A DNA stretch of 64,000 bases from the NCBI RefSeq assembly GCF_900079725.1, contig NZ_LT599032.1, positions 1,234,871-1,298,870 on the forward strand, read 5' to 3'. How positions within the stretch are numbered: the first letter of the stretch is position 1; each line of letters starts with the position of its first letter. The notes beneath the pieces were generated by a model, which saw nothing but the letters and a program-made list of their open reading frames with translations, did no database searches and was not told where the DNA came from. This DNA is from an uncultured Dysgonomonas sp. GTDB lineage: Bacteria > Bacteroidota > Bacteroidia > Bacteroidales > Dysgonomonadaceae. A program made the position numbers and the translations under genes. Positions 2,001 to 51,883 of this stretch are shown piece by piece.

Positions 2001-3779
2001 ATGAAAAAACTTAAGCTTTATATTCCTGTATTGGCTATAGCGTGCGCAGGAATTGTATTTTCTACAACATCGTGCGTTGATGATTCCGAATCTCAAAGTG
2101 TAACTAATCTGCGGGGAGCCCGTGCCGAGCAGATGAAAGCTGAAGCCGCACTGGCTACAGCACAGGCTGAAGCTGCAAAAATAGCTGCAACAGCTGAAGC
2201 TGCATTGAAAAATGCGCAGGCTGAAGCTGCAAAAGCACAAGCTAAATTAACAGAAGCTGAAGCAGCTTATCAGACTGCAAAAACAGAAGCCGACAAAGAA
2301 AAATGGGCTGCCGAAATTGAAGCTGCAAAAGAAGCTGCCAGACAAGCTAAAGCTGATGCTGATATAGCTGTAAAGGCTGCAGAATACAAGCTGGATCAGA
2401 TGAAAATCCAGGCAGAAATGGATCTCTTAAATTTACAAAATGAATTGGAGAAACTTAAGAATGATGATCCTGTATTGACCGATGCAATCAATAAATACAG
2501 TACTTTCATTGGAGAAGTAAATACGAAAAAAACTCTAATAGCTAAGAAGAATCTTGATTTAACTAAGATGAATGCCTTATTAGCAGATAAGACAGCTTCG
2601 AAAGAAGAACTTGCTGCAACTCAGATTAAATACAAGAACGAACAAATTGCCAATATTACAGAGGCTATTGAAGCTAATAAGATCGAAATCGCAAACTGGA
2701 ATGTGTTATTGGCTAAAGGTGGTACCGATATTGAAAGTGAGATAGCTGAATTGAAGAAACAAAAAGATGACCTTATCTATAACAAGTCTGTAGATGTTCG
2801 CAAAGCTCTGGATGTTGCTATCGATGCGTCGGATGCAGCTAAAGGGAAAGTTGAGGACTTCAGAGAGCTTGGTACAGTAAAAAGATATTTGAGCTATGAT
2901 TATGACAAGCAGATATCTATCGTAGAGTACTATACTGTAGGCGAATTGAAAAATAATCTGACAGATAGAAAGACTAGCCTTACCAGTATGGAGAAATCTC
3001 TGAAAGAATGGGAAACTAAGTATAATAAAGCAGAGCAGGAGATAGAAAGTCTTTATAATGCTTATCTGGCTGCACAGAAGGCTGCAGATGACGCGTATGT
3101 AGCATATAATAAGGCTGTAGATCAGAGAAATGCAGTTTATGATAATCCGGCTTCAACTCAAGCTCAGAAGGATGCAGCAGATGCTGCTGTCACAACAGCT
3201 TTGACTGCATGGAATACAGCTATTACAGCACAGAATGATGCTAATACTAAATATACAAATGCACAGAACGATCTGGATAATTATCAAGCTCAAATCCTGT
3301 ATTATAAAGGATACGTTGCAGATTACAAATCTGATATTGCAGACCTGGAAAAAGCCATAGCAGCTTACAATAATGATTCGAATGCTCCACGCACTTTGGA
3401 AACAGCTTTTGATACAGCATTCGCCGCAATGGAAACAGCTCAGGATACCTATAGTGACCTGCGCGCCGAGATTGATGCCTTACAAAGCGAAATGGATAAG
3501 CTGAGCAACATATATTACAGCGAAGGTTCAGTTAGCCTTGACTACATAAAAGATCAGATTAAGATACTTGAAGATGTCAACATTGATAACACCAACTCTA
3601 TAGCACAATTGAACAGGGATGTCAATGAAATCAAAGAAACTAAAACTGTTGATATTGCTCTCCTGAAACTTGATATCACAGAACTGGAAGCTGAAATCGC
3701 TAAACTTACAGTCGAACTGGGTGTAGCTCAGAAACAAGCCGATGCAGCAAAAGCTATAGTTGACGCAAGAACTAAGTAA
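2001..3779 (+). CDS. Large alanine-rich coiled-coil lipoprotein
   Basis: A 592-residue exported protein of unknown function. The signal peptide ends in a lipobox with lipidated Cys25 (STTSC), followed by VDDSES, an acidic stretch like the Bacteroidetes surface-export signal. Nearly all the rest is predicted coiled coil. Residues 40-160 are Ala/Glu/Lys/Gln repeats such as AQAEAAK and AEAAL, which are also near-identical direct repeats in the DNA. A break around 285-320 contains an aromatic SYDYDKQ stretch, further helices follow, and the end is another Ala/Lys-rich helix. It probably forms a long rod anchored in the outer membrane. A barrel protein follows 84 bases later, separated by a strong hairpin, suggesting a shared transcript. 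I do not recognise a named family. Confidence 0.85.
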   Translation: MKKLKLYIPVLAIACAGIVFSTTSCVDDSESQSVTNLRGARAEQMKAEAALATAQAEAAKIAATAEAALKNAQAEAAKAQAKLTEAEAAYQTAKTEADKEKWAAEIEAAKEAARQAKADADIAVKAAEYKLDQMKIQAEMDLLNLQNELEKLKNDDPVLTDAINKYSTFIGEVNTKKTLIAKKNLDLTKMNALLADKTASKEELAATQIKYKNEQIANITEAIEANKIEIANWNVLLAKGGTDIESEIAELKKQKDDLIYNKSVDVRKALDVAIDASDAAKGKVEDFRELGTVKRYLSYDYDKQISIVEYYTVGELKNNLTDRKTSLTSMEKSLKEWETKYNKAEQEIESLYNAYLAAQKAADDAYVAYNKAVDQRNAVYDNPASTQAQKDAADAAVTTALTAWNTAITAQNDANTKYTNAQNDLDNYQAQILYYKGYVADYKSDIADLEKAIAAYNNDSNAPRTLETAFDTAFAAMETAQDTYSDLRAEIDALQSEMDKLSNIYYSEGSVSLDYIKDQIKILEDVNIDNTNSIAQLNRDVNEIKETKTVDIALLKLDITELEAEIAKLTVELGVAQKQADAAKAIVDARTK

Positions 3780-18607: not shown

Positions 18608-18736
18608 TTACATACAAAATTTCTATAAGCATAAGACAAATGATTATTGTTTTATACTTTGACGTTAAACAAAAAAGGGGTTTGATAAGATGATTTCCCG
18701 GAATTTAAGAATATGCACGTGCGCAATAGCATCTTC

Positions 18737-18809
18737 TTTCCCTACGCCGGCATTACCCGGATCAGGTTTAATGGGTGTGATCTCAGCCTGTAATTTTAAG
18801 GCACCCCTA
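18737..18809 (-). promoter_or_regulatory. TPP riboswitch (THI element)
   Basis: Read on the minus strand, the segment starts AGGGGTGCC, has GGCTGAGA, then ACCTGATCCGGGTAATGCC and ends GTAGGGAA, the conserved core of the thiamine pyrophosphate aptamer, with P2 closed by the variable stem after GGGGTGCC. It begins about 5 bases after the predicted transcription start and lies 130 bases before the TonB receptor gene. Between them a G/C cluster followed by CCCCTTTTTTG (near 18671-18681) may form the OFF-state terminator. TPP binding should lower expression of the receptor and carrier. Confidence 0.95.
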
Positions 18810-18820
18810 AGATTTCGAAG

Positions 18821-18944: not shown

Positions 18945-18952
18945 TACCTTTG
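18945..18952 (+). promoter_or_regulatory. -7 promoter element of the lipoprotein/Dna2-like unit
   Basis: TACCTTTG matches TAnnTTTG and lies 20 bases before the ATG at 18973, giving a leader of about 13 bases. No other promoter-like site lies in the short gaps of the following two genes. Confidence 0.65.
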
Positions 18953-18972
18953 TAACATAAAACTTAAAAAAC

Positions 18973-19518
18973 ATGAAGAAGAATATTTTTATTGCGATTC
19001 TATTTTCTATTGTAACGTTAGTTTCTTTCTCGTCATGTGAAAGCGACGATGACTATATAGTTAGAAGCGGATTGTACTGCGATTTTTTAGCAACCTCAAA
19101 TAATAAAGGTTTTTTTAGCAGTAATGGTGGAGGAAGTTATTCTTTCCGTGATCTACCTGATTTAGGCTATGGCGATATTATAGGTATGGAATACAGAGGT
19201 ACCTCCCTTACAATTACAGGAGATATACGAGAAGGAGATGTTATCCGGGATTTATATATTAGTGTTCAGGGTGTTGGAGAATTTCTTTACGCCTCTGATA
19301 TAAAAGTATATGAAGACTTCGAAAAGATTATATTCAATACTTCTAACGATCCCGAATTCTATAATTTCATGAATGACGCCATGTACAAGTTTTACAGAGA
19401 CGGACGGATTAATATTGTTGTAGACGGATATGTCACAAACCGTCAGGGAACAAGTATCTCGAATGTAGAGATGGAAATATATCTGGATAGCTCACTTGAT
19501 GTTACTATTCGAAGATAA
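18973..19518 (+). CDS. Surface lipoprotein of unknown function
   Basis: A 181-residue lipoprotein with signal peptide and lipidated Cys22 (SFSSC). The next residues ESDDD match the acidic export signal that sends Bacteroidetes lipoproteins to the cell surface. The rest looks beta-rich: a GGGSYSFRDLP region, LTITGDIREGD, INIVVDGYV and VEMEIYLDS, compatible with a small sandwich fold. No family was recognised. It is the first gene of a three-gene unit, with the helicase-nuclease start only 6 bases after its stop. A surface protein in front of a cytosolic DNA enzyme is an odd pairing and may only reflect shared transcription. Confidence 0.8.
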   Translation: MKKNIFIAILFSIVTLVSFSSCESDDDYIVRSGLYCDFLATSNNKGFFSSNGGGSYSFRDLPDLGYGDIIGMEYRGTSLTITGDIREGDVIRDLYISVQGVGEFLYASDIKVYEDFEKIIFNTSNDPEFYNFMNDAMYKFYRDGRINIVVDGYVTNRQGTSISNVEMEIYLDSSLDVTIRR

Positions 19519-19524
19519 TCTAAC

Positions 19525-22500
19525 ATGTCCGGTTTCATTCAATCTGACTATCTCTCCGAAATACAACAAATAGATAGCTCCGACCTATCATTAAGAAATA
19601 AATATATCCGTCTGAAACGGATACTTGAGAGAGGCTGCAAAGATATCACCGCCGGTGAATCTTTGCAGTTTCCCTCTTTATTTTCACGCCTTGTCTTTAT
19701 CGGGCAAAAATATGAACTGCCAAAATCATTGGAATGGCAGTTGCAGAATATACGCATAAAAGCATCCTACCTACTGCGAAACGATAAGAATCTGGTATCT
19801 CCCGACCAGTATCAGCAAGCAAAGGAAGGTCTGGAAAATTTCCTTTTATATATAGAAGGCGAAAAACAGGATTTCAACTATGTAGAAGATACTGTGTTCG
19901 ATTATGAGCCTGTGTCTCACGATTTATCGAATAGAATACGTGTACAGGTATTGGAAATAGATGCCGAAAACGAACTTCTTATCTGTCAGTCCGAAAGCCT
20001 TATCGGAGAAAGCTTAAAAGTGAGATACAATGTCTCTCCCATCAATAATATATTCAATGAAACCATTGAACGCCTTTGGATTGGGGCACAACTCAACCTC
20101 ATTGACGTAAAAGCAGACGATGCGGGAGTCTACATTCCTAAAATGTTTGTACTCGAACCCGATTACCTGATAGATGCTTCGGCAATGGCTGAGTGTTTTC
20201 AATCATACGGTAGCTCGTACCTTCATTACTTTCGCCGTAAGTTCGAGCCCAATGCAAACACACATTACATACTATTGGGTAATCTTGCCAACTTCTTTCT
20301 CGATGAACTCATTTATGCCGAAGATGCCGATAATCTAGCATTCGAAGAAGTATTTATGAAATCATTCCGTTCCATGCCTTTCGAATACGCAGCGTGTAAA
20401 GAAATAAGTGATAACGGTGCTTTCAAAGAATTTATGGCGAAAGCCCGAAGCCAGTTCGAAAACATAAAGCGTGTAGTGTTGAATGATATGCCTGCAAACG
20501 GATTCGATGCGTCATCCTGTACGCTTGAGCCATCTTTCTTTTGTGAAAAATACGGTTTTCAGGGTCGGCTCGATTTACTCCAGCTATCAAATGACGAAAC
20601 GGGTATAGATCGTATAATTGAACTGAAATCGGGTAAACCACCCTATCCTCGTGAAGATGTGACCAAGATAGCACCTAATCATGAGACACAGACCGCTATC
20701 TATCGCCTGATGATACAAAGTGTATTCGGCAAGGATGCACGACATATATATCCGACCATCCTTTATTCCTCGGCCGAGAATTCAGGAGAAAATATACGCT
20801 TTTCCGCAATTTACCAACAACTGGAAAAAGATATTATAAACGTACGGAATCTCATTGTAGCTACCGAGCATGATTTATATATCGGCGGTGCAGAATATGT
20901 AGAGAAAATGTTCCGAAATCTCTTTAATCTGGATAATTACGGTCGCGTACCCCAGTTCTTTATAGACAAGTTGGCAGAGTTAGAAAAGGTAATAGATAAG
21001 GCAACTCCACTAGAGAGGGCATATTTTTATCGTTACATCAACTTTATTACCAGAGAGCTATATCTTCAAAAGACTGGAGACGAAGGTTATAATACATCCA
21101 TGAGTGTATCCGCCTTATGGAATACTTCTTTTGAAGAACGGCAAGACTCTTTAGAGCTCATTGCCAATCTTGAAATAGAAGATATTGACGACTCGGGCCG
21201 GGATATGATTATCCGCTTCAGGAGAGATAAAGATGATTGTGTCAATTTCCGTGAAGGAGAAATATGTATTCTTTACCCCCGCCAAAAAAGTGGGGAGTCG
21301 GTATTGACAAACCAGATATTAAAAGGTACTGTAGTCGAGATTTCTTCATATCATGTAGTCTTGAGATTCAGATATAAACAACGAAACCGCAACTTCTTCT
21401 CCCGATACAGATACTGGGCTGTGGAACATGACAAGCTAGACCATAGTTATAATGCCATGTACAAGAGCCTGTATGCCTTTCTGTCCGCTCCTAATGACAA
21501 AAAAGAGTTATTACTTGGCTTACGGGAACCGCTCTCATCCACCCTGTATAAATTAACGACGGATGCCACAAAAGAGGCAAAACAGAAGAACATCATAGAT
21601 AAAGCCTTAGCAGCCGAAGATTACTTCCTTATTGTAGGGCCTCCGGGAACAGGTAAAACATCCATCTTTGCCCGGCAACTTATAGAGCGTTTCTCTGCCG
21701 GAAAGGATACGAATATCCTCGTAATGGCATATACCAACCGTGCCGTGGATGAATTATGCGCCTCCATCTGTCAGGCATTCGGCAAAAGTGAAGACGAGTG
21801 TGACAGATATATCCGTATAGGTGCGGAACTCTCGTGCGGTGAAGGTTATCGTCATCGCCTGCTGCAAAATATCTCCCATCAGGCAGACAGTAGAAAAGAG
21901 CTGATCCAAACCATAGACCGTACCCGTATTTTTGTCGGCACTCTGGCTTCCATAACCGGAAAGCCCGAATTGTTCGACTTGAAGAAGTTTAATGTTGCTA
22001 TCATAGATGAGGCATCTCAAATACTGGAGTCGCAGATTATAGGGCTTCTACCTCTGTTCGACAAGTTCATTATGATAGGAGATCATAAACAATTGTCTAC
22101 AATCACTTTGCAGGATGAAAACAAGTCGAAAGTAGAAGAGTCCGTATTAAATGACATTGAATTATCCGATTGCCGCGAATCCTTATTCGAGCGGCTGTTT
22201 CATGTCTGTCAAAAACAAGGCTGGACACATGCATATGATACCTTGACCTATCACGGACGGATGCATGAAGATATTGCGTCCCTTGTCAACACCAGCTTTT
22301 ATGACAATATGCTACATGTAGCTACTGACAGGCAATACCAGCCTTTAATATATCAAACATACGACAGATCGGATAAATTGCAATCATTAATTGCGACAAA
22401 ACGGACTGCATTTATCCCTGTCAGGCAAACAGACAATACAAACAATTCGGATAAGCTGAACAAACAGGAAGCAGATGTTGTTATCTCTTTAATAAAAGCA

Positions 22501-22884
22501 ATACTTGAGATTTACAGACTTAACAACATGGCTTTTGACACCCGGAAGACCATAGGCATAATAACTCCCTACCGTAATCAAATCGCGCTGATAAAGCAGA
22601 AACTGGAAGAAACTGAAATTCCTGAGTTGAATGATATTATGGTAGATACCGTAGAGCGTTATCAGGGTAGTCAGCGGGATATCATCATTCTTTCGTTTTG
22701 TTTCAACAAGCCATACCAACTGAGATTCTTTAGTAATCTGAACCGCGAGCGTACTGTAGACCGCAAACTGAATGTAGCTCTTACCCGGGCTCGCGAGCAA
22801 CTATTTATGATTGGGAATGATTATATCCTGAATCAGAACCCAATCTACAGGGAGATAGTAAATAAGTCGGTTATCAATCCATGA
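19525..22884 (+). CDS. Dna2-like nuclease-helicase (PD-(D/E)XK plus SF1B helicase)
   Basis: A 1119-residue DNA enzyme. Residues about 210-400 form a Cas4/Dna2-type nuclease: PDYLIDASAMAECF (212-225), GRLD (D350), IELKSGK (E366 and K368) and QTAIY (Q389 and Y393). A beta-barrel region (about 545-640) resembles the 1B barrel of Upf1/Dna2 helicases. The SF1 motor follows: Walker A GPPGTGKTS (705-713), AYTNRAVDE (735-743), DEASQ (828-832), GDHKQL (852-857), TYHGRMHEDI (908-917), VERYQGSQ (1043-1050) and VALTRAREQ (1084-1092). It should unwind and cut DNA ends or flaps. The motif-I His common in the nuclease seems to be Asn in GNLANFFLDE. It is flanked by a lipoprotein and a UBA-like gene in one unit. 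A housekeeping or a defence role is possible. Confidence 0.9.
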   Translation: MSGFIQSDYLSEIQQIDSSDLSLRNKYIRLKRILERGCKDITAGESLQFPSLFSRLVFIGQKYELPKSLEWQLQNIRIKASYLLRNDKNLVSPDQYQQAKEGLENFLLYIEGEKQDFNYVEDTVFDYEPVSHDLSNRIRVQVLEIDAENELLICQSESLIGESLKVRYNVSPINNIFNETIERLWIGAQLNLIDVKADDAGVYIPKMFVLEPDYLIDASAMAECFQSYGSSYLHYFRRKFEPNANTHYILLGNLANFFLDELIYAEDADNLAFEEVFMKSFRSMPFEYAACKEISDNGAFKEFMAKARSQFENIKRVVLNDMPANGFDASSCTLEPSFFCEKYGFQGRLDLLQLSNDETGIDRIIELKSGKPPYPREDVTKIAPNHETQTAIYRLMIQSVFGKDARHIYPTILYSSAENSGENIRFSAIYQQLEKDIINVRNLIVATEHDLYIGGAEYVEKMFRNLFNLDNYGRVPQFFIDKLAELEKVIDKATPLERAYFYRYINFITRELYLQKTGDEGYNTSMSVSALWNTSFEERQDSLELIANLEIEDIDDSGRDMIIRFRRDKDDCVNFREGEICILYPRQKSGESVLTNQILKGTVVEISSYHVVLRFRYKQRNRNFFSRYRYWAVEHDKLDHSYNAMYKSLYAFLSAPNDKKELLLGLREPLSSTLYKLTTDATKEAKQKNIIDKALAAEDYFLIVGPPGTGKTSIFARQLIERFSAGKDTNILVMAYTNRAVDELCASICQAFGKSEDECDRYIRIGAELSCGEGYRHRLLQNISHQADSRKELIQTIDRTRIFVGTLASITGKPELFDLKKFNVAIIDEASQILESQIIGLLPLFDKFIMIGDHKQLSTITLQDENKSKVEESVLNDIELSDCRESLFERLFHVCQKQGWTHAYDTLTYHGRMHEDIASLVNTSFYDNMLHVATDRQYQPLIYQTYDRSDKLQSLIATKRTAFIPVRQTDNTNNSDKLNKQEADVVISLIKAILEIYRLNNMAFDTRKTIGIITPYRNQIALIKQKLEETEIPELNDIMVDTVERYQGSQRDIIILSFCFNKPYQLRFFSNLNRERTVDRKLNVALTRAREQLFMIGNDYILNQNPIYREIVNKSVINP

Positions 22885-22915
22885 TAACTACATTTTGTCT
22901 AAAAAAGAATAAGCA

Positions 22916-23518
22916 ATGACCAATAAAATAAAAGAATTACGGAGAATAGTCCCGGTACCGATGCATGAAGCCTTGCAGCTATTGAAAGCAAATGACGGGG
23001 ATGTCGAAAAATGCGTCTATCTGTTCAAAGCCAAATCCATCAAAGAGATATGCGAACAAACAGGCTGTGACGAACAAACTGCAGCTGAATACTACGAAGC
23101 TGAAAGATTCGATATCAACAGGGCTATATCTAATATTAAAGAAGCCATCTATGATAAAAACTATCAGCCAATCGATGGAGTCACTAAAGAGAGTATCGGC
23201 AATATCTTGCAATGGCTACGGGTAGTCGAAGCCGAAGATTTCGGTATATCCCTCGATTATCAACTGCTGGATAAGGCATTGCTGACACTGAGTCTTATTC
23301 CCTCATTAAATGATATTGCAGCCAAAGTAAAAGCAGCTAAAGCAGCCAAGGATTTGATATTTGAAGGCTATACGGATGCTGACAGCCTCGAAGACTTTGT
23401 CCGTCGTCACAAAAAGTTGGATGATGATCAGGATTTTATAGAAGCGAACCGGATTATCGGCCTTGGGATTATTGTAATCAAAGAGGAACTATTAAGGCAT
23501 GTACGAAACCTCAACTAA
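22916..23518 (+). CDS. Protein with two UBA/TS-N-like helical repeats
   Basis: A 200-residue cytosolic protein. Residues 5-43 (ELRRIVPVPMHEALQLL, then NDGDVEKCVYLFK) have the three-helix pattern of the EF-Ts N-terminal/UBA domain, with the GD-x-E-x-A turn. Residues 43-77 repeat it in diverged form (EICEQTGCDEQTAAEYYEA, then FDINRAISNIKEA). The C-terminal half is helical with LSLIPSLNDIAAKVKAAKAAKDLI and no known motif. It lies 31 bases after the Dna2-like gene, before a strong shared terminator, so it is probably a partner or accessory of that enzyme. The domain call rests on pattern, not on alignment. Confidence 0.65.
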   Translation: MTNKIKELRRIVPVPMHEALQLLKANDGDVEKCVYLFKAKSIKEICEQTGCDEQTAAEYYEAERFDINRAISNIKEAIYDKNYQPIDGVTKESIGNILQWLRVVEAEDFGISLDYQLLDKALLTLSLIPSLNDIAAKVKAAKAAKDLIFEGYTDADSLEDFVRRHKKLDDDQDFIEANRIIGLGIIVIKEELLRHVRNLN

Positions 23519-23538
23519 AAGTCCTTAAGTTAAAATAC

Positions 23539-23575
23539 AAAGAGGTGCTGACTTTTACAATCAGCACCTCTTTTA
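23539..23575. terminator. Bidirectional terminator between UBA-like gene and clpC
   Basis: AAAGAGGTGCTGA (23539-23551) and TCAGCACCTCTTT (23561-23573) form a perfect 13-bp stem with A-run before and T-run after, so it can serve both convergent units. Confidence 0.9.
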
Positions 23576-26417: not shown

Positions 26418-26423
26418 TAAAGT

Positions 26424-26515
26424 ATTTTTCATGGTATTAGATTTATGGTTAGGAGTGAAGATTGGTTGTCGTGAGACAACCATTCCTATTTTATAGGGGT
26501 TTATACAGCCTGTAC
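26424..26515 (+). ncRNA. Candidate small structured RNA (or 21-codon ORF)
   Basis: Just after the orphan promoter come three consecutive dyads: TGGTTGTC-GTGA-GACAACCA (26463-26482, an 8-bp stem closed by a GNRA tetraloop), CCTAT-TTT-ATAGG (26485-26497) and TACAG-C-CTGTA (26504-26514). A 21-codon frame, ATG at 26431 to TAG at 26496 (starts MVLDLWLG), spans the first stem. No known RNA family was recognised, and no strong U-run follows, so the 3' end is uncertain. Confidence 0.4.
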
Positions 26516-41354: not shown

Positions 41355-42962
41355 TCACCCTGACATATCGTTACCCATCTTCATCAATCTCACAGGTTTA
41401 AACTGAAGAAAATAAAGTACAATGCAAACTAAAAGGAAAATACCCAGAATCAACATCCAGCCTGCGATGGTTTTTATACTTACCGTTACTGCTTGTATCT
41501 GTATCTTCTGATACAATGCGTTAGTCGCTATCCGTTGCGCGTCCTCGAGGCTCCAGCCCTGCGACAATGCAGTATTTACTGATGTGGTAAACTGGCTACC
41601 GGCCAAAGCATTCTGCATATCCACACCTTCAGAAAGGACACTTACATTTTTTTGTTGCAGACGATACAGCCAGTTTGTGAGGACTGATGCACCTATTGCA
41701 GGAGCAAGAGCCGAACGGGCCGATATCATAAAAAATGCATTATATATAAGCTGTTTGGGTGAGAGTCCGTATATGCCATAAATGGCAAATGCCACAAACA
41801 GCACCAACATACCCACACCCCTGAGAAACATCAGTAGATAAAGATCTTCGTACAAGCCTGCAGGCGTTATCATAAAATACAGGAGCGCCAGTGAAATTGT
41901 AAAACAGGCAAAACCCATAAAGATAAGCCAAGCCATGCGTATTTCTTTTACAAACCAGTAATAACATATAACCCCTCCTACCAGAAAGCCCGGAATCATA
42001 TACAAATACAGTTCATTCATATGCGTACTATCCAGCCTCAGCACATTGGTAGTATAAGAAGATATCAGTATACTGAATGATGCATAGAACATCAGTACAA
42101 AAGAAAGGAGATATACCGTTACCGAATTACGGTTTTTCAGCACACTCATATCCAGAAAAGGCGTATCGGAAAACTGACGGCGAAGAAAAAGCCAACCTGT
42201 AAGCGGAATCAGTATTGTTGCTATTATGATACTGGTTGAAGAAAACCAGTCTTCCGTTTTTCCATATGTTGCCACATATACAATAGCCATAAAGCAAACC
42301 GACACAAGGAAAAAGCTCAGCCAGTCTATATCCCTGAAAGGAATACGCACCAGCCTGCGGGCAAACGACATGCATACAACCACTGCAATAATGGCGACCA
42401 ACAACATCAATATCATAAAATAATACATATACTGCCAGTTATACAGATAAGCCAGCTCTGCTGTGAGGACTAAAGACAATTGTCCGCATATCAATGTAAT
42501 AGGATAAAACTTTGCGTAAAATTCGTTACGTGTTCCGCTCGGGCTTAATGCCGGCATCAATATGTTGATAGTCTCAATCATCGAAAAAGCCTTGAAATAA
42601 CCGATAAAGAAGCTGCAAACGATGATTACTTCTATGTAGTCTGTTTCGGCACATATCAGGCTGAGTAATACCTGGAATAAGAGGACCACAAGAATGATCG
42701 TTTTGGCTGTAGCCAAAGGTTTTATTTTCGGTATAACCAGATATGCAACGGCCATACCGACCGATGATGCATAATAAGCCATGTTGATATCCTCGGATAT
42801 AACGCCAAGATAACTGGATATGTCTATATTACTGCCTGTGTATGCACCGTTGACCAGTAATACAGGAATAAGTATAGTAAGAGCAACAACCACCTTGAGC
42901 CAGTTCGGGACCCAGCTTCTGAAAGGACTGATTGTCGTTGTGCGTATTACCGGAATTATCAT
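41355..42962 (-). CDS. MFS multidrug efflux transporter, DHA2/EmrB-like
   Basis: A 535-residue inner-membrane protein with about 14 spans, the DHA2 topology. Motif-like segments include YYASSVGMAVAYLVIP and RNSVTVYLLSFVLMFYASF. A periplasmic loop near 440-490 is rich in Gln/Asn/Ser (QKNVSVLSEGVDMQNALAG), as in Bacteroidetes EmrB-like proteins. It is the last gene of the operon MarR-TolC-HlyD-MFS and starts about 100 bases after the HlyD gene. With those it should form a proton-driven pump across both membranes for drugs, bile salts or fatty acids. The canonical motif C is not clear. Substrates are unknown. Confidence 0.85.
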   Translation of the reverse strand: MIIPVIRTTTISPFRSWVPNWLKVVVALTILIPVLLVNGAYTGSNIDISSYLGVISEDINMAYYASSVGMAVAYLVIPKIKPLATAKTIILVVLLFQVLLSLICAETDYIEVIIVCSFFIGYFKAFSMIETINILMPALSPSGTRNEFYAKFYPITLICGQLSLVLTAELAYLYNWQYMYYFMILMLLVAIIAVVVCMSFARRLVRIPFRDIDWLSFFLVSVCFMAIVYVATYGKTEDWFSSTSIIIATILIPLTGWLFLRRQFSDTPFLDMSVLKNRNSVTVYLLSFVLMFYASFSILISSYTTNVLRLDSTHMNELYLYMIPGFLVGGVICYYWFVKEIRMAWLIFMGFACFTISLALLYFMITPAGLYEDLYLLMFLRGVGMLVLFVAFAIYGIYGLSPKQLIYNAFFMISARSALAPAIGASVLTNWLYRLQQKNVSVLSEGVDMQNALAGSQFTTSVNTALSQGWSLEDAQRIATNALYQKIQIQAVTVSIKTIAGWMLILGIFLLVCIVLYFLQFKPVRLMKMGNDMSG

Positions 42963-42967
42963 TTTTA

Positions 42968-43062
42968 TATTAGTTACGAGTTACTTTTCCCTTCGGGCAA
43001 TTACTAGTTACAAGTCGCTTGCGCCATTATTAATTATTAATTTTTCATTCTTAATTAATTCC
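42968..43062. repeat. Word tracts between HlyD and MFS genes
   Basis: GTTACGAGTTAC and ATTACTAGTTACAAGTCGC flank CCCTTCGGGCAA (42968-43018), and then TTATTAATTATTAATTTTTCATTCTTAATTAATTCC (43026-43061). The AT-rich word recurs near 46841-46916. Confidence 0.5.
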
Positions 43063-44160
43063 TCATTCTTTTATCGCCTCGGTAACCACCATCATTCCCG
43101 CACGCAATTTCTGCATATCTTCGGCCGATATACCTTCAAAATCGATACGGACAGGGATACGTTGCTGTATTTTCACAAAGTTTCCTGCGGAGTTATCGGT
43201 CGGCAGCATTGAGTATTTGGCTCCCGTAGCTTCTGATATCGCTGTTATCGTTCCTGTAAATGTCTTACCGCTTATAGCGTCGACCTTTATATTTACTTTC
43301 TGCCCGATGTAAATATTTTCAATCTGTTTTTCGCGGTAGTTGGCTATAATCCATTTATTGTCGTTTTTAATCAGGTTGGTTATTGTCTGTCCGGCTTGCA
43401 CCAACTGTCCGGATTCAAGGGTGCGGCGACCTACATAACCGCTATACGGAGCAATAATAGAGGTATAAGATAAATTTAGTTTAGCCATTGCCAGATCAGC
43501 TTCGCGGCGGAGTATTGTAGCCTCCGCATTTCCCTGTTTTCTTGTAGTTTCGGTAGATGTCGATTTTAATGATTCTTTTTGTCGCAGTAAAGCATTATAG
43601 TGAGCACTTTGTGCATCATATTCACTTTTTATCTGGTCGTATTGTTGCCGGGAAACCGACTCTGCATCCAACAGATTTTTATAGCGCTTCAGATCTTGCT
43701 CGGCTTTCCACAGGCGCGCTTTGGCCTCCTCTATATTTGCTTCCGAAACAGTAACATTTGCAGATGTCGTCACTATACTTGAAGATAGCACGGAAGAAGA
43801 ACTCTTGGCATCCATCAGTGCGGCTTCGGCATCCATCTCTTTTATTTTAAACTCCCTGTCGTCTACTATCAATAGGGTATCTCCTGCATTTACCCACTGG
43901 TGTTCGGTAAAACGCACCTCTTTTATATAACCGGATACACGTGAGTTGATAGGTGTTATATATTGCTCTATTGTTGCATCGTTTGTTATTTCGTAGCGGT
44001 AGTAACGGATGAAAAAAGTCACTCCCCATGCTATACCGCCCAATGCCAGCAATATACTGATGATGTTGAGTATAATATTACGTGTACGCTTTTTTTTCAG
44101 TTTACGATAAGCTTCTTTTTCCTCTTTTCTGTCAGCCAGGTTTGATTTATCTGTATCCAT
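43063..44160 (-). CDS. HlyD/EmrA-family periplasmic adaptor
   Basis: A 365-residue membrane-fusion protein. A basic N-terminus (KLKKKRTRN) precedes a single span at about 28-52. The biotinyl-lipoyl half domains flank a coiled-coil hairpin: INSRVSGYIKEVR and VDDREF before, TSIIAPYSGYVGRRTLESGQLV after. The alpha-hairpin (about 110-215) is rich in Glu, Lys and Ala. It bridges the MFS pump and the TolC-like channel. It starts 2 bases after the TolC gene's stop, so translation is coupled. Confidence 0.92.
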   Translation of the reverse strand: MDTDKSNLADRKEEKEAYRKLKKKRTRNIILNIISILLALGGIAWGVTFFIRYYRYEITNDATIEQYITPINSRVSGYIKEVRFTEHQWVNAGDTLLIVDDREFKIKEMDAEAALMDAKSSSSVLSSSIVTTSANVTVSEANIEEAKARLWKAEQDLKRYKNLLDAESVSRQQYDQIKSEYDAQSAHYNALLRQKESLKSTSTETTRKQGNAEATILRREADLAMAKLNLSYTSIIAPYSGYVGRRTLESGQLVQAGQTITNLIKNDNKWIIANYREKQIENIYIGQKVNIKVDAISGKTFTGTITAISEATGAKYSMLPTDNSAGNFVKIQQRIPVRIDFEGISAEDMQKLRAGMMVVTEAIKE

Positions 44161-44162
44161 AA

Positions 44163-45470
44163 TTATAAGTTTCCGCTAACTTTTTGTAATTGATAGTATG
44201 TATATATAGCGTTTGTTTTTGCAGCAGTAAGCTGTAACTCCGAATTCAACTGTACTGTATTTGCATCCAGCAAGTCGGTCAGTATAGCCAGCTGGTTGAA
44301 GTACCTGTTTTTTACTATCCGGTAGTTTTCATTCGATTGCTCTACAGATTTTTCCAACGCTTTTATTCTGTCCAGTGCTTCCTGATGTTTTACGAATGCC
44401 GATTTCACACCCGTACGGATATTTTGTCGTTGCTGTTCCTGTGCAAGTTCCTGCAGATGTATCTGACTTTTTGCCGCATTGGTAGCATGCTTCCTGTCAA
44501 ATAATGAAGAAATATGATACGACAGATTCAGTGTCACTCCCCATGCATTCAGATACAAATCTTGTGCAGGTGAGACATTTGGAATGGGGCGGGCCAGAGT
44601 ATTGCTTGCCTGCAACGACAATGTAGGCAGGTAATCGGCCTTTGTCAATTTCAGGTTGTTTTGGGCTAAAACAATATTCTTTTCCATAATTCTCATATCC
44701 GGATATTGTGCGTAGGCCTGATATATATAGTCGTTTTCCGGCTCTATATCGAATTGGGATAACAGCAGATCCTGATCGGGTTCAAGAATTGTATTTTCGT
44801 CCATTCCCAATACAATATCCAATTGTTGCGAAGTAAGAGAAATATTATTCTCTGTCTCTTTATATGACAATTCATAATTTGTAAGAACCAATTGGCTGCG
44901 TAAGACATCATTTGTGGTAATCATCCCCTCCTCTTTCATTTTACCTATATCCCGCAAGCGGGTTTTAGCCTCCTCGATATTCTTGGCATATACATCACGT
45001 TCTTTATACAGATTGAACAAATCGAGATATTTACCTATCAACCAGAGTTTCAGTTCCGACTTATCCTTTTGTAATGACAATTGAGCAATATCCTTTTCCA
45101 ATTCCGCTTTCTCTATGCTGTTCTTTATCCGCCCGCCCTGATATATGGGCTGAGTTGCCGCCACCTGATAATTCTGCTTCCAGTCGGGAGAGTCGGAGTG
45201 TTTCAGGAATGATAAGTCTTTATCGAGGATGGTCGGCGTACCCACATAGCCGAACAGGCCGCTGACCGAAATATCGGGTAATCGTTTATTCTTTGCCAAG
45301 CCTACCTTATCTTCCGATATCTGTGTCTTTATCACAGATGATTGTATTGCTATGCTGTTTTGCAATCCATGTTCAAACAGTTCGTTTACCGTAAGCTTGT
45401 ATGTATTCTGTGCCGTAAGCGATGATGTGTATATTGATGTAGCCAATAATATGTATAGTGTTGTTTTCAC
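44163..45470 (-). CDS. TolC-family outer-membrane efflux channel
   Basis: A 435-residue protein with a signal peptide cut after about residue 20 (SLTAQ). Two structural repeats of long helices and short strands are visible, each with the NxxL-type pattern (YKLTVNELFEHGLQNS near the start; YPDMRIMEKNIVLAQNNLKLTKADYLP in the middle). The end ATNAIYTYYQLQKVSGNL resembles other OEP proteins. It forms the outer-membrane exit duct for the downstream adaptor and MFS pump. It begins directly after the MarR gene's stop. Confidence 0.92.
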   Translation of the reverse strand: MKTTLYILLATSIYTSSLTAQNTYKLTVNELFEHGLQNSIAIQSSVIKTQISEDKVGLAKNKRLPDISVSGLFGYVGTPTILDKDLSFLKHSDSPDWKQNYQVAATQPIYQGGRIKNSIEKAELEKDIAQLSLQKDKSELKLWLIGKYLDLFNLYKERDVYAKNIEEAKTRLRDIGKMKEEGMITTNDVLRSQLVLTNYELSYKETENNISLTSQQLDIVLGMDENTILEPDQDLLLSQFDIEPENDYIYQAYAQYPDMRIMEKNIVLAQNNLKLTKADYLPTLSLQASNTLARPIPNVSPAQDLYLNAWGVTLNLSYHISSLFDRKHATNAAKSQIHLQELAQEQQRQNIRTGVKSAFVKHQEALDRIKALEKSVEQSNENYRIVKNRYFNQLAILTDLLDANTVQLNSELQLTAAKTNAIYTYYQLQKVSGNL

Positions 45471-45899
45471 TTATCTTTCCTTATTAATATCCGTAAATTC
45501 CTTCATATATTCTATGCATAGTTGTATATGTTCCGGATTAACATTTTCTTCCAGTTTTACATATACATCGTCTATTATCTTCCTTATTTCGGCATGTAGC
45601 TTTTCTCCTTTAGCCGTTAATAGGACAAGTTTGTTGCGCTTATCGGACGAATCTTCTTCTCGCGTAACCAGTCCCCTTTTTTCCATATTCTTTATCAGAT
45701 AGGAAAGACTTGATTTGTCCTTATACGTCAGATTTGCCAGTTCCTGTTGATTGACTTTACTATCGACTTTGTCCAAACACCTCAATATATGCAACATTTC
45801 GAATGTTACATATATATTATGTTCGCGCATTTCTCTATGGATTATCTGACGGTAGAAAGACTGAGTCTGCAATATTGTTTGTACAAAAGTTTGCATCAT
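45471..45899 (-). CDS. MarR-family repressor of the efflux operon
   Basis: A 142-residue winged-helix dimer. Recognition helix region VNQQELANLTYKDKSSLSYLIKNMEKRGLV, wing REEDSSDKRNKLVLLT, and flanking dimer helices are all in place. It is the first gene of the efflux operon, with no gap before the TolC gene. A perfect 7-bp dyad at 45940-45961 sits between the -7 element and the upstream promoter region, so autorepression with relief by a pump substrate is the expected control. Confidence 0.92.
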   Translation of the reverse strand: MMQTFVQTILQTQSFYRQIIHREMREHNIYVTFEMLHILRCLDKVDSKVNQQELANLTYKDKSSLSYLIKNMEKRGLVTREEDSSDKRNKLVLLTAKGEKLHAEIRKIIDDVYVKLEENVNPEHIQLCIEYMKEFTDINKER

Positions 45900-51127: not shown

Positions 51128-51883
51128 TCAATATATTTCTCCTTTTACTAAATCGACAAAAAGTTCTGACAATTTCTGACTGACAGCTCCGGCATACACC
51201 TTGCCTTTTTCTGCGGTAGACTTCTTCGGATTCCCTATACCCGTATCATATGACACCTGCGCCCAATTTCGCGGAGTCCATCCCGTACCATCACGTAATG
51301 TTTCGGGTTTGAACGGAGTATAAGCCCCGTCTCCCGCCAGAGATAAGTTCACAAGTTCGGGATAGTAATGCATCATTACCGAAGTTTCCATCTCTCCGGC
51401 ATGGTCGTCTCTTTCTTCAAAATATCCGGCCTGAGGCAAGATTGCAAACCAATCACTTACTACAATCAGAAAATGAGGATAATCGACAGCAAGATCACGG
51501 ATCATATTTTTAAAACTATTGCCACCGTGGCCATTCACTATAACCAACGTATATATCCCCTGACAATCGAGAGAAGCGACAATATCGGTCAGTATACCCT
51601 TTTGCGTTTCGTACCGGCCATGCAGGCAAAAAGGAAGCTCGCGCTGCCCCGGATTCTGTGAGCCCAGCGTAATCGGAGGCAACACCATACCTTTTATCTT
51701 TTGCGAATCATATGCCTTTATTACAGCGTCTACTGATATACCATGTGCCAGATAACAATCGGTGATATATGGTAAATGATAGTTGTGTGGTTCGGTTGCT
51801 CCCCATGGAAGAACAGCAAAATCATATGTCTGCCCTTTGGTATCATTATATATAGCAGTAAGGATATCGAACGAAGGATTCAT
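51128..51883 (-). CDS. Creatininase-family amidohydrolase
   Basis: A 251-residue metal-dependent amidohydrolase. Metal ligands sit in LPWGATEPHNYHLPYITD (E31, H36 and D42), VNGHGGNS, and HAGEMETSVM. The family includes creatininase, ArfB of riboflavin/F420 synthesis and the mycofactocin protease MftE. None of those pathways is visible here, and the Bacteroidales members are uncharacterised. It is monocistronic with -7 element TAGCTTTG at 51915-51922. Confidence 0.88.
   Translation of the reverse strand: MNPSFDILTAIYNDTKGQTYDFAVLPWGATEPHNYHLPYITDCYLAHGISVDAVIKAYDSQKIKGMVLPPITLGSQNPGQRELPFCLHGRYETQKGILTDIVASLDCQGIYTLVIVNGHGGNSFKNMIRDLAVDYPHFLIVVSDWFAILPQAGYFEERDDHAGEMETSVMMHYYPELVNLSLAGDGAYTPFKPETLRDGTGWTPRNWAQVSYDTGIGNPKKSTAEKGKVYAGAVSQKLSELFVDLVKGEIY

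What the first reader, a model, noticed from the sequence alone, without database searches (positions are those of the whole stretch)
18945..23575. Compact unit: surface lipoprotein, Dna2-like nuclease-helicase, UBA/TS-N-like protein
A promoter (18945), gaps of 6 and 31 bases, and a single strong terminator (23539) define a three-gene unit. The central enzyme joins a Cas4/Dna2-type nuclease to an SF1B helicase. A lipoprotein with an ESDDD surface signal precedes it and a double UBA-like protein follows. I know no described system with this composition. It could be a DNA-processing or defence module, or housekeeping repair with an unrelated lipoprotein sharing the promoter.
Basis: partly seen in the sequence, partly recalled or inferred. 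Interest (0 to 1): 0.7.

Follow-up and report, generated by a model that had tools for sequence, protein, structure and literature searches.

The report
Swapped surface lipoprotein beside DNA nuclease-helicase
A Dysgonomonas bacterium carries a conserved DNA-repair-type enzyme resembling eukaryotic Dna2 and, just upstream of it, a predicted surface protein whose outer part differs completely between sister species while its surroundings stayed nearly identical; the third gene of the proposed unit got there by a chromosome rearrangement.

Summary
Genes, gaps, promoter motif and hairpin are as described, but this is not a three-gene system. (1) The central protein is a Dna2-like nuclease-helicase without the conserved iron-sulphur cysteines. 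It is a family core gene (57 of 62 good genomes) whose upstream partner changes with lineage: lipoprotein in 17, diacylglycerol kinase in 32, other in 11 of 60 chosen loci. (2) The UBA-like gene touches the helicase in 2 of 22 UBA-positive genomes, at a rearrangement breakpoint. (3) The lipoprotein is the real find: an unnamed family with 31 of 32 strong profile hits at the helicase gene. In Dysgonomonas its mature part falls into classes that do not follow the species. In two sister pairs, signal peptide and helicase are 92-95% alike, the mature lipoprotein 18-22%. It is the least conserved of 206 positionally matched genes in the one pair tested. Best reading: a surface lipoprotein locus under balancing selection, its alleles exchanged through conserved flanks, beside a housekeeping enzyme that shares its promoter. 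Surface display, the mechanism of exchange and the selecting agent are inferred, not shown.

The parts
18945..18952 (+). TAccTTTG, promoter -7 type motif of the lipoprotein gene
   Evidence: motif within 60 nt upstream in 23 of 30 related ORFs
18973..19518 (+). Lipoprotein gene; signal peptide and Cys22 at about 18973-19047 conserved with the sister, mature part from about 19050 replaced
19525..22884 (+). Dna2-like nuclease-helicase gene (nuclease about residues 205-430, helicase from about 640)
22885..22915 (+). 31-base junction of helicase and UBA-like gene, rearrangement breakpoint shared with G252/L031
22916..23518 (+). Double UBA_4-like protein gene, not a stable member of the unit
23539..23573 (.). 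Hairpin between convergent UBA-like gene and clpC, probably a terminator
51131..51883 (-). Creatininase-family gene that lies next to the UBA-like gene in 8 of 13 other Dysgonomonas loci
41358..45899 (-). Genes that directly follow the helicase in several other Dysgonomonas species, here distant and reversed

Best explanation
Two unlike things share a promoter. The downstream one is a vertically inherited Dna2-like nuclease-helicase, most likely a 5'-3' motor that unwinds and cuts tailed or flapped DNA in repair or replication (inferred from fold and intact motifs). The upstream one is a small beta-rich lipoprotein predicted to be displayed on the cell surface. In Dysgonomonas its locus stays between a TonB receptor gene and the helicase, while its mature domain occurs in old allele classes that cross species borders. 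Most likely alleles are exchanged by homologous recombination through the conserved promoter and signal peptide on the left and the helicase start on the right. Shown: classes, mismatch with species relations, sharp borders, near-exclusive position. Inferred: surface display, exchange as the mechanism, and balancing selection by something that recognises the exposed domain (phage, antibacterial toxin or host). The helicase is probably a passenger of the lipoprotein's promoter and a recombination flank, not its partner. The UBA-like gene is there by a rearrangement.
For: Window vs sister L031: DNA about 80-100% identical in 100-base windows from 15.8 to 26.1 kb, except a gap-rich one at 16.3 kb and the stretch from about lipoprotein codon 26 to helicase codon 4, about 40%. 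Pair L052/L053: same borders, flanks mostly 0.9-1.0 (lowest 60-base window 0.75), mature part 0.30-0.55. Protein: mature 0.18 and 0.22 against helicase 0.93 and 0.95, signal peptide 0.92 and 0.93. AU test rejects both sister pairs as clades for the mature domain, p 2.6e-5 and 1.6e-28. Nearest relative by helicase and by mature lipoprotein differs in 19 of 21 Dysgonomonas loci. Mature identity unrelated to helicase identity (Spearman 0.09, 406 pairs of 29 loci) while the TonB N-terminus follows the helicase (0.57, 120 pairs of the 16 of 29 loci that hold it). Lowest of 206 positionally matched genes, 0.32, median 0.96. 31 of 32 strong hits at the helicase gene. Full-length fold match DNA2, E 5e-42. 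Core: 57 of 62 good family genomes.
Against: Outside Dysgonomonas the lipoprotein follows the helicase: nearest relative agrees in 8 of 8 loci, so swapping is shown for Dysgonomonas only. Class placement on the helicase tree is slightly better than random (13 changes, fewest possible 9, shuffled mean 14.7, 48 of 500 shuffles as low). Within class A the lipoprotein (0.69-0.77) is no less conserved than the helicase (0.70-0.75), so no sign of fast point change; substitution-rate tests were not done. The pair's persistence in five genera with touching or overlapping frames could mean a functional link. No donor of the swapped part was identified, and there are no within-species data.
Confidence: 0.68

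Rival explanations
1. Sorting of tandem copies: ancestors carried several diverged lipoprotein copies in a row, and sister species kept different ones, with no transfer between species.
For: Tandem diverged copies exist upstream of the helicase in 2 genomes, G254 and G258. Deletion between the similar signal-peptide regions of tandem copies would also leave a constant signal peptide.
Against: Ancestors of both sister pairs would need to have held two classes each until shortly before the split; only 2 of the 21 Dysgonomonas genomes with a full copy show any tandem, and in the class table no genome holds two of the multi-member classes.
Confidence: 0.18
2. Functional two-part system: the surface lipoprotein and the cytosolic nuclease-helicase act together, for example against phage or in DNA uptake.
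For: 31 of 32 strong lipoprotein hits lie at the helicase gene, in five genera; frames often touch or overlap.
Against: Different compartments; the enzyme is kept without the lipoprotein in 54 genomes of nine other genera and in G274 and G338; no covariation of the two sequences; neighbours read as housekeeping.
Confidence: 0.08
3. The three genes form one defence or DNA-processing operon, as the finding proposes.
For: Tight spacing and one hairpin in the window; UBA_4 domains.
Against: Helicase-UBA adjacency in 2 of 22 UBA-positive family genomes; breakpoint synteny; the UBA-like gene has its own TAnnTTTG motif in 9 of 10 other Dysgonomonas loci viewed.
Confidence: 0.02

Closest known systems
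Bad, bacterial DNA2-like helicase-nuclease of Geobacillus stearothermophilus (PMC7430649: passages and two sections read), and eukaryotic DNA2 (5eaw, 5ean, 5eax)
   Same: RecB-family nuclease followed by SF1B-type helicase in one chain; the model matches DNA2 over its full length
   Different: No conserved four-cysteine set. Core gene of a family here, whereas Bad is described as rare, sporadic and beside a methyltransferase gene in Geobacilli. Direct comparison with Bad's sequence not done
UvrD-Cas4-like fusions (PMC5704561, passages read)
   Same: Cas4-like nuclease joined to a superfamily 1 helicase
   Different: There a UvrD-type 3'-5' helicase, partly in defence contexts; here the best matches are DNA2, IGHMBP2 and UPF1
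Recombining host-interacting surface lipoproteins of Borrelia (PMC11389397, search listing with start of abstract only; OspC is recalled)
   Same: Diverged lipoprotein alleles spread by recombination
   Different: Unrelated family; here one chromosomal locus between core genes, and the selecting agent is unknown
Surface-exposed Bacteroidetes lipoproteins with an acidic export signal (PMC5080379, passages read)
   Same: Lipobox Cys followed by acidic residues (ESDDD here; SDDDD proposed for B. fragilis)
   Different: Export of this protein not tested; residue +2 is E, not S

Membership tests
DNA2/Bad (iron-staple Dna2-like helicase-nucleases) | RecB-family nuclease motifs before an SF1B-type helicase in one chain | tested here: met
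   G252, D350, E366, K368, Q389, Y393, Walker A GPPGTGKT and DEA invariant in 60 sequences; DNA2 first in profile and fold searches
DNA2/Bad (iron-staple Dna2-like helicase-nucleases) | Four conserved cysteines binding an Fe-S cluster across the nuclease domain | tested here: not met
   In residues 205-545 only C224 is invariant and C291 at least 90% conserved in 60 sequences. It works like DNA2 by anatomy but is not filed as an iron-staple member
DNA2/Bad (iron-staple Dna2-like helicase-nucleases) | 5'-3' motor and ssDNA endonuclease activity | not testable with these tools
   Needs purified protein
PLuB_AAA (NF040671) | Score at or above curated cut-off, 999 bits | tested here: not met
   254.2 bits
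Mokosh (MkoA, MkoC of PADLOC) | Match beyond the shared helicase domain | tested here: not met
   Best stretches of the three Mko models lie in residues 778-1106; second stretches not displayed
NigD1/NigD2 lipoproteins (NF051862) | Score at or above cut-off, 60 bits | tested here: not met
   14.4 bits over residues 3-41; no Pfam family at E 0.1 is shared by more than 1 of 24 members
Surface-exposed Bacteroidetes lipoprotein | Lipobox cysteine followed by acidic residues | tested here: met
   Cys22 invariant in 24 aligned rows, acidic residues follow it in most rows
Surface-exposed Bacteroidetes lipoprotein | Display outside the cell | not testable with these tools
   Needs protease accessibility
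Conserved three-gene operon | The same three genes together in relatives | tested here: not met
   Helicase-UBA adjacency in 2 of 22 UBA-positive genomes among 101 of the family

The most novel reading that the evidence does not exclude
A polymorphic recognition locus: the lipoprotein is a kind-recognition or attack-target surface protein whose allele classes are traded between species like serotypes, and its lasting link to a Dna2-like nuclease-helicase is functional, either because the enzyme promotes the recombination that swaps the alleles or because the two form the outer and inner line of one anti-phage response.
Probability: 0.06. Interest if true: 0.85.

Novelty: new variant of a known kind. 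Interest (0 to 1): 0.5.

Why it matters
It points to an unnamed lipoprotein family, fixed at one locus, whose mature part differs between sister species with sharp borders. That suggests strong recognition of this small protein by something in the environment of Dysgonomonas, and makes the agent searchable. It also shows a Dna2-type nuclease-helicase without the Fe-S cysteines as a core gene of a bacterial family, where the described bacterial Dna2-like enzyme is called rare and sporadic (PMC7430649). And it warns against reading operon partners off one genome: one neighbour here is a rearrangement scar.

Tried and rejected
Three-gene unit: rejected by synteny. Defence filing by PLuB, ProA, Hhe (NCBIfam, far below cut-offs) or by Mokosh and Gabija B (PADLOC, helicase domain, no cut-offs given): rejected. 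The word PLuB gave 26 papers, of which the 20 listed show none on such a system. Lipoprotein fold: of the 50 Foldseek hits listed most are virus capsid proteins, all with TM-score under 0.5 and rmsd of 6 or more; read as noise from beta sheets. Profile search of PDB sequences: nothing convincing, best E 0.01. DNA inversion switch: no inverted repeat pair flanks the variable part, no second strong copy in G000. Assembly artefact: unlikely, two independent sister pairs show it. Rows to discount: the 0.45 row runs into a stretch filled with N, the 0.40 row pairs proteins with unlike starts; both were kept in the 206. Its lipoprotein pattern is loose, so the 27 rows include other proteins.

In print: searches listed nothing on this locus (10 of 41, 10 of 2,675 and 7 of 7 papers listed; titles and starts of abstracts seen). 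Most subscription papers are outside the library. (PMC12853789, passages on BSAP toxins) and one search gave background that I did not use.
Full report
What is there. The window lies in a Dysgonomonas-type genome: of 9 named loci found with the 1119-residue protein, 7 are titled Dysgonomonas and 2 Prevotella. Upstream lie a TPP riboswitch (18722-18818, minus strand), a TonB receptor gene and a PnuC-like gene; downstream and convergent lies clpC (these three names are mine, from the sequences).

The central enzyme. Pfam gives AAA_11 and AAA_12 above cut-off and Dna2 below it. A profile of 45 relatives ranks DNA2 first among solved structures, through the helicase part; the nuclease stretch scores only 1.5 bits. 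The AlphaFold2 model from 60 aligned rows (mean pLDDT 87.9) matches DNA2 crystal structures over about 1100 alignment columns (TM-score 0.62-0.67, rmsd 7.4-7.8, E about 5e-42), ahead of IGHMBP2 and UPF1. In 60 sequences G252, D350, E366, K368, Q389, Y393 and the helicase motifs are invariant, but in residues 205-545 the only strongly conserved cysteines are C224 and C291. The four-cysteine iron-staple set described for DNA2, AddB and Bad (PMC7430649) is thus absent. By anatomy the enzyme works like Dna2; it fails that defining feature and I call it a Dna2-like variant.

Its distribution. At E 1e-30 or better: 24 of 25 genomes of the genus (18 of 18 good ones), 89 of 101 of the family (57 of 62 good ones), 29 of 247 of the order and 32 of 247 of the phylum, the window's genome included each time. 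Many members of genus g180 match only from about residue 131, so the N-terminal helical part is optional. In 60 loci chosen from the 89 positive family genomes, the three genes upstream on the same strand hold a diacylglycerol kinase in 32 (PF01219 for the two examples scanned), the lipoprotein in 17 and neither in 11. Downstream neighbours vary. This is the pattern of a vertically kept housekeeping gene with changing transcription partners.

The UBA-like gene. It occurs in 22 of 101 family genomes (22 of 62 good ones). It touches the helicase in G000 and G252. In the other 20 it lies 9-35 kb away on the same contig in 5 (G249, G250, G251, G255, G258), about 295 kb away in G133 and on another contig in 14 (positions). 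In the order sample it was found only in 3 family members of 149 genomes. In 13 other Dysgonomonas loci, read with 1.5-kb flanks, clpC lies convergent downstream in 7 (directly in 5, one gene between in 2) and is not seen in 6; a creatininase-family gene is next to it in 8 (PF02633). Of 10 such loci viewed, 9 have a TAnnTTTG motif before it. The genes that follow the helicase in several other species lie in the window at 45.9 to 41.4 kb in reverse order, and the creatininase gene at 51131-51883. The helicase-UBA junction is therefore a rearrangement breakpoint, most simply from an inversion; one locus (L034) suggests more than one event.

The lipoprotein. Searched singly it matches 21 of 101 family genomes. 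A profile of 24 rows gives 32 hits at E 1e-18 or better (up to 35 candidates scored per genome). Of these, 29 lie directly upstream of the helicase, 2 are outer copies of tandem pairs there (G254, G258), and one is a piece at a contig end (G260) whose other piece is beside the helicase. The next hit is at 1.3e-9; weaker ones are mostly signal peptides. The genera g1, g2, g181, g182 and g183 have 35 helicase-positive genomes: 29 have a full copy upstream; 2 a piece at a contig end (G260, G269); in G259 the contig ends there; in G278 only part of the helicase is held; 2 (G274, G338) have none adjacent. None of the 54 helicase-positive genomes of the nine other positive genera has a strong hit. 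No Pfam or NCBIfam family fits. The model (mean pLDDT 86) is mainly strands with one helix in the mature part; its fold matches are not meaningful.

The swap. Against the sister L031 (Dysgonomonas sp. UBA7710; its contig has the length of G252's), DNA identity per 100 bases is about 0.8-1.0 from 15.8 to 26.1 kb, apart from a gap-rich window at 16.3 kb. It drops to about 0.4 from lipoprotein codon 26 or so and recovers within a few codons of the helicase start. A second sister pair, L052/L053, shows the same borders, with flanks mostly 0.9-1.0 and a mature part of 0.30-0.55. As proteins: helicase 0.93 and 0.95, signal peptide 0.92 and 0.93, mature part 0.18 and 0.22. The window protein is nearest to that of L052 (0.58; helicases 0.72), the sister's to L032 (0.77; helicases 0.74). 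The nearest relative by helicase and by mature lipoprotein differs in 19 of 21 Dysgonomonas loci and agrees in 8 of 8 outside. At 45% identity, 30 mature domains form seven classes with several members and seven singletons. On the Dysgonomonas helicase tree (21 rows) the classes need 13 changes, the fewest possible being 9 and the shuffled mean 14.7; 48 of 500 shuffles do as well. The AU test rejects both sister pairs as clades for the mature domain (p 2.6e-5 and 1.6e-28; long branches are in play). Over 29 loci mature-domain and helicase identity are uncorrelated (Spearman 0.09, 406 pairs); the TonB N-terminus, found in 16 of them, follows the helicase (0.57) and not the lipoprotein (-0.04; 120 pairs).

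Control. Of 206 genes flanked by matching anchors in 464 kb of G000 and 400 kb of G252, the lipoprotein is lowest, 0.32 against a median of 0.96; 27 rows with a loose lipoprotein pattern have a median of 0.94. One other gene shows the same picture, a 592-residue lipoprotein-like protein at 2001-3779. So the behaviour is rare but not unique.

Results against. Outside Dysgonomonas the lipoprotein follows the helicase. Within class A it is as conserved as the helicase, so this is a matter of old classes rather than fast point change. Substitution rates were not tested and no donor was found. Sorting of tandem copies remains a rival. The long persistence of the pair leaves room for a functional link.

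How it most likely works. The acidic stretch after Cys22 resembles the export signal described for Bacteroidetes surface lipoproteins (PMC5080379), so surface display is likely but inferred. A small exposed domain with old alleles that cross species borders behind a constant signal peptide is what recognition by phage, antibacterial toxin or host would favour. The conserved promoter and signal peptide on one side and the helicase start on the other give homologous recombination two arms, which would explain both the sharp borders and the fixed place. The nuclease-helicase is probably just co-transcribed. The analogy to recombining surface lipoproteins of Borrelia rests on a search listing with the start of an abstract (PMC11389397) and recall.

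Noticed in passing
window 2001-3779: 592-residue lipoprotein-like protein with near-identical signal peptide but mostly 0.36-0.68 DNA identity in its mature part between G000 and G252, flanks mostly 0.8-0.97: a second candidate swapped or hypervariable surface protein in the same window.
   Followed up: partly
window 26422-26495, + strand: Match to the Bacteroidetes sRNA family FopS (RF04319, 60.9 bits), between clpC and a UPF0029 gene.
   Followed up: no
L062 (G252:C27:83001-86423): A second, 40% identical relative of the nuclease-helicase in the sister genome, in a longer open frame (1478 residues from the first ATG) at another site.
   Followed up: no
L034 and L039: MAGs titled Prevotella sp. 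whose helicase (74% and 81%) and upstream lipoprotein look like Dysgonomonas; the record titles may be wrong.
   Followed up: partly
L058/L154 (G254) and L044 (G258): Two tandem, mutually diverged lipoprotein copies upstream of the helicase.
   Followed up: partly
window 22900-52000: Gene order after the helicase differs among Dysgonomonas species, pointing to one or more local inversions.
   Followed up: partly
loci of genera g3, g176, g178-g180, g184, g185: Diacylglycerol kinase gene just upstream of the nuclease-helicase gene in 32 of 60 loci, often touching or overlapping it: another envelope-related partner for the same enzyme.
   Followed up: partly
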